From IMG/VR virus record IMGVR_UViG_3300044695_006882, positions 1 to 33,760 of that record: a stretch of DNA of 33,760 bases. One strand, written 5' to 3'. The position numbers and the translations under genes are program-made. Below the pieces are notes generated by a model that saw only the letters and a list, made by a program, of their open reading frames with translations, had not been told where the DNA came from and searched no databases. Below are positions 1,394-4,844 of the stretch, piece by piece. Every line of letters begins with the position of its first letter. The stretch's first letter is position 1. This stretch comes from a virus.

Positions 1394-1468
1394 TGGCTGT
1401 AGAGGTGGGTTACGCTCCCACATAATTTCGCTTAACAGGCGAATGCATTGCTAGTCTGCCACTCTACA
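1394..1468 (-). tRNA. tRNA-Asn (anticodon GTT) with non-canonical T- and D-loops
   Basis: Acceptor TGTAGAG pairs perfectly with CTCTACA, anticodon arm TTCGC-CTGTTAA-GCGAA reads GTT, and a CCA is encoded after discriminator G. The T-stem GTGGG/CCCAC is perfect, but the 7-nt loop is AGCGTAA instead of TTCRANN, and the D-loop (GACTAGCAA) lacks the G18-G19 pair. The normal elbow contacts therefore cannot form in the usual way, although every stem is intact. Confidence 0.8.
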
Positions 1469-3327: not shown

Positions 3328-3402
3328 TGGTGCGGGATATCAGAGTCGAACTGATCTCTCAAGTTTGGAAAACTCACATATTAGCCGATATACGAATCCC
3401 GC
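3328..3402 (-). tRNA. tRNA-Gly (anticodon TCC)
   Basis: Acceptor GCGGGAT/ATCCCGC, anticodon arm TGAGT-TTTCCAA-ACTTG, T-arm ATCAG-TTCGACT-CTGAT, discriminator A and encoded CCA (3330-3328). Confidence 0.95.
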
Positions 3403-3411
3403 GAAAAATAG

Positions 3412-3511
3412 ACAATGTAGATGGAATCGAACCATCGCCACGGCATTACTGCCTATCCTATCGGATAAGAAGCCCTTTGCTTGGGGTGTGCTACCACTAC
3501 ACTATACATTG
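3412..3511 (-). tRNA. Oversized tRNA-Cys-like gene (apparent anticodon GCA)
   Basis: Acceptor CAATGTA/TACATTG, D-arm GTGT-AGTGGTA-GCAC and T-arm GATGG-TTCGATT-CCATC are all excellent. The anticodon arm ACCCC-AAGCAAA-GGGCT has one C-C mismatch and A in place of T33; it reads GCA (Cys). Between it and the T-arm are 34 nt instead of the usual 4-23, folding as two hairpins (TATCC-GATA-GGATA and GGCA-GTAA-TGCC). No CCA is encoded, unlike its neighbours. Whether it is functional is uncertain. Confidence 0.6.
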
Positions 3512-3517
3512 ATAATA

Positions 3518-3603
3518 TGGTGGGCAGAGCTGGATTCGAACCAGCGTAGGCGCAAGCCAGCAGATTTACAGTCTGCCCCCTTTAGCCACTCGGGCATCTA
3601 CCC
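3518..3603 (-). tRNA. tRNA-Tyr (anticodon GTA)
   Basis: Acceptor GGGTAGA/TCTGCCC, anticodon arm GCAGA-CTGTAAA-TCTGC, a class II variable arm, T-arm GCTGG-TTCGAAT-CCAGC and encoded CCA. The stop codon TAG of the upstream HNH gene is formed by bases 4-6 of this tRNA. Confidence 0.95.
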
Positions 3604-4179
3604 AATATTTTTTATAAAATTTATAAAATTGATCATATCGTCATGTTTCATTGTATGTTTTGCATAATTTATAGTTCTACTGACAAATTGAATATTGTCT
3701 TTAATATATCCTAGATTAGAATCTATTCTATCTACTGATGCTACTCTCCAATTTGGAACTTCAAGTTTATGATTTTTATGTGTTGGTAATATCAAAAGTG
3801 TATTGGTATATGCACATTTACCATGTTGCTTATCCCAACAATCTTTTAAATCTTCCAAGGTGATATTTGAAGATTTTCTATTTTTATTTTTTATACACTT
3901 AAAAATATATTTAAAATCTCTAAATTCTTTTGAATGTAAATCGCCACCTCTATTGAATGAGCCAATCTCTATTAATTTATATGCTCTTTTTCTAGCTAAC
4001 TCTCTAAGTTCTGGTGTATTTTTTGCACATCCGCAACTTTTAATTTTATTTCTTTTTAAATCATAAAAATCACATTCTTTTTCTTTACCGCAATCACATT
4101 TAACTTTAACTCTGCGATATGAAACGTGCTCTAAAATAGTTAATTGGTTGATTTTTTTTCCTACGAATGATATTTTCAT
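3598..4179 (-). CDS. HNH-family homing endonuclease between tmRNA and tRNA-Tyr
   Basis: 193 residues. An N-terminal zinc ribbon (C29-C31 with C49-C51, pattern CDCG...SCGC) precedes a basic linker; the nuclease half has CAYTNTLL (about residue 122) and the HNH signature VASVDRIDSNLGYIKDNIQ followed by NYAKHTM. This arrangement is typical of phage-borne HNH enzymes that spread introns or themselves. It starts 58 bp after the tmRNA 3' end and its stop codon lies within tRNA-Tyr, so it fills the gap between two RNA genes exactly. It could mobilise the ORF-less tmRNA intron in trans; that is inference. Confidence 0.8.
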   Translation of the reverse strand: MKISFVGKKINQLTILEHVSYRRVKVKCDCGKEKECDFYDLKRNKIKSCGCAKNTPELRELARKRAYKLIEIGSFNRGGDLHSKEFRDFKYIFKCIKNKNRKSSNITLEDLKDCWDKQHGKCAYTNTLLILPTHKNHKLEVPNWRVASVDRIDSNLGYIKDNIQFVSRTINYAKHTMKHDDMINFINFIKNIG

Positions 4180-4257: not shown

Positions 4258-4467
4258 ACACTATGGTTTTCACCACCAGATTTCTCTGTTTGTGCGCTGG
4301 ACTATGCCTTTACCTTAGTATTTTTACTTTAGGTAGGTGATTATAGTCTCTACACCTTCTCATTATCTGAGCTTGGCTCGGCATTGGGACGGATATTATT
4401 CCAGACCGTTCACCGAATTTACACCTTACTAACTATTCGTTTCCAAATAGCAGACCCTCATTAAGTT
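4258..4467 (-). other. Group I intron (about 210 nt, no ORF) in the tmRNA T-loop
   Basis: Between the T-stem halves the minus strand shows a group I core: AATTCGGTGAACGG, TGCCGAGCCAAGCTC, GAAGGTGTAGAGACTATA and AAGGCATAGTCC. P7 forms as GACTAT (4348-4343) with ATAGTC (4305-4300). Two GAAA-tetraloop hairpins follow (CAGA-GAAA-TCTG, 4288-4277; TGGT-GAAA-ACCA, 4275-4264). Removing 4467-4258 restores the T-loop TTC+GATG. Shifting the boundary by one base (4468-4259) gives a canonical U-ended exon and G-ended intron but a loop TTTGATG, so the exact junction is open. Confidence 0.88.
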
Positions 4468-4658
4468 GAACTCCTGTCCTCTATCAACTTACATTAACCT
4501 TCAAACATGCTTATATTGTCTCGTTAAGGTGAGACTTTCCTGTTAGGGACGACCGATTTCTCTGCCATCCTCCACCAATGCATTAGGCAGAATACATACT
4601 GTTTTATTACCTGTTTTGTATCCAAGAGCAGAGCAGGTTTATCTCTTGGCGTATTTGC

Positions 4659-4739
4659 TTAGGCAGCTAAAGCAAGTTCGCCTTGTGGGGCGAAAACGCG
4701 ATTAGCAATACCACGCACAGCGTTAACAATTCTGTTGCC
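4659..4739 (-). other. tmRNA tag reading frame
   Basis: Frame following PK1: GGC AAC AGA ATT GTT ... GCT TTA GCT GCC TAA. The encoded tag is 26 residues, starting GNRIVNAVRG and ending PQGELALAA, a C-terminus recognised by ClpXP-type proteases. GGC as resume codon is inferred from position; a neighbouring frame is also open but lacks the LAA end. Confidence 0.75.
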
Positions 4740-4844
4740 GTTTATGTTTTTTTGATCAGCTTTTTAAGAGGCCAACTGATCAACCTCTACATGCTAGTTG
4801 AATGCTTATCAATACAGTCGAAACCAGAACGCGCCCGATAAAAT

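What the first reader, a model, noticed from the sequence alone, without database searches (positions are those of the whole stretch)
3412..3511. 100-nt tRNA-Cys-like gene with two hairpins in the variable region
Acceptor, D- and T-arms are excellent, but the variable region is 34 nt and folds into two stem-loops, which no standard tRNA class has. A33 and a C-C mismatch in the anticodon arm add to the oddness. It might be a non-decoding tRNA, a cleavage decoy or a substrate with an inserted element.
Basis: partly seen in the sequence, partly recalled or inferred. Interest (0 to 1): 0.55.

Follow-up and report, generated by a model that had tools for sequence, protein, structure and literature searches.

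The report
Phage tRNA mimic with two-hairpin insert
A small RNA gene in uncultured bacterial viruses folds like a transfer RNA but carries an unusual, strongly conserved anticodon arm and two extra hairpins, so it probably does something other than read codons, perhaps acting as bait for a host factor that handles tRNAs.

Summary
Window 3412-3511 (-) is a 100-nt tRNA-like gene with intact acceptor, D and T arms, anticodon loop AAGCAAA (A33), an unpaired 28-42 position and two hairpins in a 34-nt variable region. It is not a pseudogene: I found 26 copies in 25 uncultured phage records. In a 16-row alignment 12 of 29 pairs keep pairing through changes on both sides, including three of four in the second hairpin, and RNAalifold predicts the same fold unprompted. 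The Levitt pair 15-48 also covaries, so the tRNA elbow is kept. The anticodon arm is the most conserved part. Against a decoding tRNA-Cys: A33, a conserved stem mismatch, no encoded CCA in 23 of 24 copies (178 of 189 ARAGORN tRNAs in the same loci encode it), a discriminator that is U or A, and a normal tRNA-Cys in 8 of 25 carriers. It occurs in phages that share no detectable large proteins and is cleanly absent from close relatives. I read it as a non-decoding tRNA mimic, most likely presenting its anticodon arm to a host tRNA-binding factor such as an anticodon nuclease. Fold and conservation are shown; function is inferred.

The parts
3412..3511 (-). whole tRNA-like RNA (5' end at 3511, discriminator base U at 3412, no encoded CCA)
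   Evidence: Rfam RF00005 42.6 bits; model R1 119.3 bits; 26 copies in 25 records
3505..3511 (-). acceptor stem, 5' strand
   Evidence: pairs with 3413-3419; 5 of 7 pairs change on both sides in relatives
3488..3502 (-). D arm (GTGT AGTGGTA GCAC)
   Evidence: 4 of 4 pairs kept in all rows; Levitt partner position 15 at 3497
3471..3487 (-). anticodon arm ACCCC-AAGCAAA-GGGCT; anticodon GCA at 3478-3480, A33 at 3481
   Evidence: most conserved segment, 14 of 17 columns invariant; 28-42 unpaired in 16 of 16 rows (read)
3442..3470 (-). 29-nt insert relative to a class I tRNA, holding both hairpins
   Evidence: present in every copy found
3454..3467 (-). hairpin 1 TATCC(GATA)GGATA
   Evidence: 97.3% of cells paired, one pair varies by A-U/G-U, loop varies in length
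3442..3453 (-). hairpin 2 GGCA(GTAA)TGCC
   Evidence: 3 of 4 pairs with compensatory changes, 100% of cells paired
3437..3441 (-). 5-nt linker equal to a normal variable loop 44-48; C48 at 3437
   Evidence: 15-48 pair G-C in 10 and A-U in 4 of 15 distinct rows
3420..3436 (-). T arm (GATGG TTCGATT CCATC)
   Evidence: 4 of 5 pairs with changes on both sides
3413..3419 (-). acceptor stem, 3' strand
3518..3603 (-). tRNA-Tyr(GTA) upstream neighbour, with encoded CCA
3328..3402 (-). tRNA-Gly(TCC) downstream neighbour, with encoded CCA; next to the gene in many carriers of the window's lineage

Best explanation
The gene encodes a conserved, non-decoding tRNA mimic of phages. Shown: it is a maintained RNA that folds into a tRNA with an intact elbow plus two extra hairpins between positions 43 and 44, found as a unit in several phage backbones. 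Inferred: it is transcribed with its neighbours and cut out by the host's tRNA-processing enzymes, which recognise the acceptor/T-arm half; it then presents its invariant anticodon arm (CCC-AAGCAAA-GGG, without the U33 turn) and the adjoining hairpin to a host factor that binds tRNA anticodon arms, tying that factor up. The likeliest target is an anticodon-cutting defence nuclease. My nested estimates: conserved folded RNA 0.97; not a decoding tRNA 0.75; acts by occupying a tRNA-binding protein 0.4; that protein is an anticodon nuclease 0.25.
For: Covariation in acceptor, T stem and hairpin 2, 0 of 500 shuffles as good, same fold predicted without a given structure, Levitt pair covaries. The anticodon arm is the most conserved segment (14 of 17 columns invariant; 0.93 mean identity among the window, L020, L032 and L145, against 0.76 acceptor and 0.73 T arm). 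Scans that did not specify the anticodon loop still returned only AAGCAAA or AAGCAAG members of this fold. A33 in all 26 copies against T in 137 and C in 2 of 139 distinct ARAGORN tRNAs from carrier loci. No CCA in 23 of 24 copies, while 178 of 189 ARAGORN tRNAs of the same loci have it. Normal tRNA-Cys(GCA) in 8 of 25 carrier records. Sits alone just after stop codons in L145, L032 and L020. Found in G001 and G002, which share no ORF product of 250 aa or more at E 1e-10. Phage tRNAs with changed anticodon loops are reported to escape anticodon nucleases (passages of PMC11455837 read).
Against: No expression data and no identified target. The largest carrier record, G001 (173,760 bases, 19 tRNAs), has no other tRNA-Cys, as a decoding role would predict. 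U73, a tRNA-Cys identity base (recalled), is present in 20 of 24 copies. Lack of CCA does not discriminate in lineage C, where only 1 of 3 ARAGORN tRNAs of G004 has it, and hosts can add CCA. The host is unknown, so no nuclease can be tied to it. ARAGORN's own preference for T33 (recalled) biases the control.
Confidence: 0.4

Rival explanations
1. An unorthodox but working tRNA-Cys: the two hairpins replace a normal variable loop and the RNA is charged with cysteine and decodes UGC/UGU, perhaps resisting host nucleases through its altered anticodon arm.
For: GCA anticodon in every copy that reaches it; U73 in 20 of 24 copies; intact elbow; G001 lacks any other tRNA-Cys among 19 tRNAs; phage tRNAs with altered anticodon loops escape nucleases.
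Against: A33 in all copies against 0 A in 139 control tRNAs; 28-42 unpaired in 16 of 16 rows; A73 in 4 of 24 and no CCA in 23 of 24; 8 of 25 carriers have a normal tRNA-Cys.
Confidence: 0.2
2. A regulatory small RNA that uses the tRNA fold as a stable, processable scaffold and base-pairs through the anticodon loop and the TTCTT linker, as proposed for larger transcripts holding the B. cereus pseudo-tRNA.
For: The exposed, invariant AAGCAA stretch and the T-T-C linker; lone position in operons of L145, L032, L020; precedent in PMC3399842 (abstract and passages).
Against: No complement longer than chance in G001, G002 or G004: 10 nt in each, reached by 184, 171 and 153 of 200 shuffles. That test covers phage genomes only, so host targets remain open.
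Confidence: 0.17
3. A non-ribosomal amino-acid carrier: charged with cysteine or another amino acid and used by a ligase rather than the ribosome.
For: Elbow and acceptor kept, decoding features lost, as in cell-wall tRNAs (recalled class; mentioned in PMC3399842).
Against: No CCA encoded in most copies and A or U at 73; acceptor sequence drifts freely; no neighbouring ligase recognised, though only selected proteins were scanned.
Confidence: 0.08
4. A tRNA precursor whose two-hairpin insert is removed by splicing.
For: Removing positions 42-70 leaves a class I layout with a 5-nt variable loop and a 15-48 pair.
Against: The remaining anticodon arm would still lack U33 and keep the mismatch; the second hairpin is held by compensatory changes; no intron family match in Rfam at the gene; 29 nt is far below group I/II introns (recalled).
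Confidence: 0.03
5. A decaying tRNA pseudogene.
For: ARAGORN does not call it.
Against: Compensatory changes throughout and a near-invariant core across unrelated phages.
Confidence: 0.02

Closest known systems
Canonical tRNA-Cys (GCA), including those of the same phages
   Same: Acceptor, D and T arms, elbow including a 15-48 pair, GCA in the anticodon loop, mostly U73
   Different: A33 instead of U33, three-pair core of the anticodon stem with a conserved mismatch, 29-nt two-hairpin insert at 43/44, no encoded CCA
Class II tRNAs (Leu, Ser, Tyr) with a long variable arm
   Same: Long structured variable region
   Different: Two separate hairpins instead of one variable helix
Bacillus cereus pseudo-tRNA tRNA-Other (PMC3399842; abstract and passages read)
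   Same: tRNA-like bacterial RNA reported as poorly charged and not on polysomes, acting outside translation
   Different: Cellular, Trp anticodon, part of a larger transcript; no sequence comparison made here
Phage tRNAs that escape anticodon nucleases (T5 tRNA-Lys versus PARIS, PMC11455837 passages read; PMC10264068 searched for six terms, no hits)
   Same: Phage-encoded, changes in the anticodon arm
   Different: Those replace cleaved host tRNAs and decode; this RNA lacks the U-turn base and carries an insert
mascRNA/menRNA (Rfam RF01684)
   Same: tRNA-like RNA cut out by tRNA-processing enzymes without a role in decoding (recalled); weak Rfam similarity 23 bits, below its cut-off of 42.5
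   Different: Animal nuclear transcripts; no relationship claimed

Membership tests
decoding tRNA-Cys | cloverleaf with acceptor, D and T arms and a 15-48 tertiary pair | tested here: met
decoding tRNA-Cys | U at position 33 | tested here: not met
   A in every copy; 137 T and 2 C of 139 control tRNAs
decoding tRNA-Cys | five-pair anticodon stem | tested here: not met
   28-42 cannot pair in 16 of 16 rows of A3 (read)
decoding tRNA-Cys | class I variable loop of 4-5 nt | tested here: not met
   34 nt in the window; 33-36 nt in the alignment rows
decoding tRNA-Cys | discriminator U73 (identity base, recalled) | tested here: inconclusive
   U in 20 and A in 4 of 24 copies
decoding tRNA-Cys | charging with cysteine and use by the ribosome | not testable with these tools
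   needs biochemistry
class II tRNA (Leu/Ser/Tyr type) | single variable-arm helix | tested here: not met
   two adjacent hairpins, second supported by covariation
tRNA pseudogene | loss of pairing and relaxed constraint in relatives | tested here: not met
   98.8% of cells paired, 50 cells with compensatory change
tmRNA or permuted tmRNA | match to a tmRNA model | tested here: not met
   no tmRNA listed at 3380-3530 up to E 10; best of its clan is RF00005, two lower matches of one clan were left out by the tool
tRNA with spliced insert | relatives of the same gene without the insert | tested here: not met
   0 of 26 copies lacks it; but the structural scans required a long variable region
anticodon-nuclease decoy | binds or is cut by a host anticodon nuclease | not testable with these tools
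   host unknown
B. cereus tRNA-Other type pseudo-tRNA | homologous sequence | not tested
   no comparison made

The most novel reading that the evidence does not exclude
A new class of viral RNA: a six-helix tRNA mimic whose anticodon arm is frozen across unrelated phages because it is bait for a host anticodon-directed defence enzyme, making it an RNA-based anti-defence factor rather than a replacement tRNA.
Probability: 0.25. Interest if true: 0.82.

Novelty: new variant of a known kind. Interest (0 to 1): 0.6.

Why it matters
Phage tRNAs are usually explained by codon supply or by replacing host tRNAs destroyed in defence. A conserved phage tRNA mimic that has lost decoding features but keeps the tRNA elbow and freezes the anticodon arm would show a third use: handling host tRNA-binding factors directly. 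It also warns that a standard tRNA finder can skip such genes, here even inside a tRNA cluster, and it gives a defined covariance model with which others can be found.

Tried and rejected
Rejected: pseudogene (covariation); late mobile insertion into a tRNA (no copy without the insert; clean absence of the whole gene in L006-L009); tmRNA piece. Tried without result: complement of the exposed core in three phage genomes; relatives in cultured phages by blastn (18 records at E up to 10, none covering more than 29% of the query), in plasmids, and of the 49-nt core in E. coli genomes; exact core pattern in genome contigs, 56 stretches, of which one passed a T-loop filter and is not this RNA; model R1 in the nearest cultured relative found by terminase (Phage C48C1: 0 matches) and in Melnitz (one match of 25.7 bits, the level of ordinary tRNAs). 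T4 RNA ligase family found in 1 of 12 records and CCA-adding enzyme family in 0 of 12, so neither explains the RNA. A second odd tRNA-like RNA (L015:354-455) gave only an identical copy. Paper searches made; led to the papers cited, none of the eight listings showed this RNA, so 'not in print' means only not found by these.

Ascertainment: the 16-row alignment was built from copies found with patterns that fixed parts of the core; fixed only CCC/GGG, part of the D arm and the T loop. L052, L064 and L232 are truncated and were left out of the alignment; identical copies were left out too, except one near-duplicate row that differs outside the gene only.

Full report
What was checked. The gene lies on the minus strand at 3412-3511 of a 33,760-base virus record that carries rIIA/rIIB-like proteins, tail proteins, a tmRNA and several tRNAs. 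Rfam's tRNA model matches it end to end at 42.6 bits and ARAGORN does not call it. On folding energy alone the case would be weak: z -2.07, and the minimum-energy fold ties with another middle.

Relatives. Pattern scans of IMG/VR and model searches gave 26 copies in 25 records, the window included. One record, L010/L057, has two diverged copies. Two scans left the anticodon loop free and returned, besides chance hits and ordinary tRNAs, only members with AAGCAAA or AAGCAAG. One other long tRNA-like RNA, L066:6103-6197, came up at 34.2 bits against 94.8-121.7 for full-length members and I do not count it.

Structure. On the 16-row alignment (15 distinct rows) 98.8% of 434 cells pair; 12 of 29 pairs and 50 cells show changes on both sides; 0 of 500 shuffles reach this; slid controls pair 33-48%. 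Acceptor 5 of 7, T stem 4 of 5 and hairpin 2 3 of 4 pairs are compensated. Hairpin 1 and the anticodon stem are nearly invariant, so covariation says little about them; hairpin 1 has a G-U/A-U alternation, one position mismatched (U-U) in two rows, and a loop that varies in length. RNAalifold, given no structure, predicts the same six helices. A 7-pair version of hairpin 1 without hairpin 2 scores less well (9 pairs compensated). Positions 15 and 48 are G-C in 10 rows, A-U in 4 and unpaired in 1, so the tRNA elbow seems to be kept. Leaving out the 29 nt between positions 43 and 44 gives an ordinary class I layout.

Constraint. The anticodon arm is the most conserved segment (14 of 17 columns invariant, mean identity 0.93 among four divergent members), above the D arm (0.85), acceptor (0.76), T arm (0.73) and hairpin 2 (0.44). 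The 28-42 position cannot pair in any of the 16 rows (read). Part of the core's invariance is built in by the patterns used, as told under Tried and rejected.

Against decoding. A33 stands against 137 T and 2 C in 139 distinct ARAGORN tRNAs of carrier loci (ARAGORN itself prefers T33, recalled). No CCA follows position 73 in 23 of 24 copies examined; L004 has ACCA. In the same loci 178 of 189 ARAGORN tRNAs end in CCA (near-identical contigs counted apart). In G002 2 of 3, in G005 3 of 4 and in G004 only 1 of 3 do, so this argument is weaker outside the window's lineage. N73 is U in 20 and A in 4 of 24. A normal tRNA-Cys(GCA) was found in 8 of 25 carrier records, with only part of most records held. 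On the other side, G001, 173,760 bases with 19 ARAGORN tRNAs, has none.

Distribution. Close relatives L006-L009 (rIIB 98% identical) lack the gene cleanly, with Tyr and Gly tRNAs five bases apart. In the window's lineage it often stands next to tRNA-Gly(TCC). In L145, L032 and L020 it stands alone, 6-7 bases after a stop codon. G001 (T4-type terminase, sheath, DNA polymerase) and G004 share 12 large proteins at a median 30% identity; G001 and G002 share none at E 1e-10, and G002 has an RNA polymerase beta-like protein and another DNA polymerase family. Sharing one RNA core over such distance suggests strong constraint or transfer between phages; I cannot tell which. The nearest named phage by terminase, C48C1, 60% identical, has no match to the model.

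Reading. A maintained, folded, tRNA-shaped RNA with decoding features removed and its anticodon arm frozen is best explained by binding to something that reads anticodon arms. Host anticodon nucleases are the best-known such phage-facing factors; phage tRNAs with altered anticodon arms that resist them are published. That the RNA is bait for one is my inference, with no direct test here. Rivals are an odd working tRNA-Cys and a base-pairing regulator on a tRNA scaffold, for which a bacterial pseudo-tRNA gives a precedent.

Novelty. Nothing like it was found in Rfam beyond the general tRNA model, in cultured phages, or in eight paper searches. I file it as a new variant of the known kind 'tRNA-like RNA acting outside translation', since its function is not shown.

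Noticed in passing
window 4462-4828 (-): tmRNA (Rfam 78.8 bits) that ARAGORN does not call; its T-arm and 3' acceptor side align poorly to the model, unlike L010 12517-12897, which ARAGORN calls. It may be degenerate or have its 3' part elsewhere.
   Followed up: partly
window 1397-1468 (-): Rfam tRNA match of 48.5 bits that ARAGORN misses.
   Followed up: no
window 3598-4179 (-): HNH endonuclease ORF whose end overlaps the start of tRNA-Tyr by six bases, inside the tRNA cluster.
   Followed up: no
L015:354-455 (+): Another 102-nt tRNA-like gene missed by ARAGORN (Rfam 41.4 bits), with what looks like an 8-nt anticodon loop, a ~36-nt variable region and no CCA; only an identical copy (L273) was found.
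   Followed up: partly
L066:6103-6272 (-): Two tandem tRNA-like genes, 95 and 64 nt, sharing acceptor, D and T arms but differing in the middle; the longer has an extended variable region.
   Followed up: partly
L043:702-777 (+): ARAGORN gives an undetermined tRNA with a four-base anticodon; 79% identical relative in L037/L200.
   Followed up: no
L237:678-929 (Stenotrophomonas phage Ps15): A permuted tmRNA (RF04321, 119 bits) overlapping a gene annotated as a pseudo tRNA-OTHER; sister phages annotate tmRNA or nothing at this place.
   Followed up: partly
G012:42761-43276 (+): T4 RNA ligase 1 family domain in one carrier (1 of 12 records searched).
   Followed up: no
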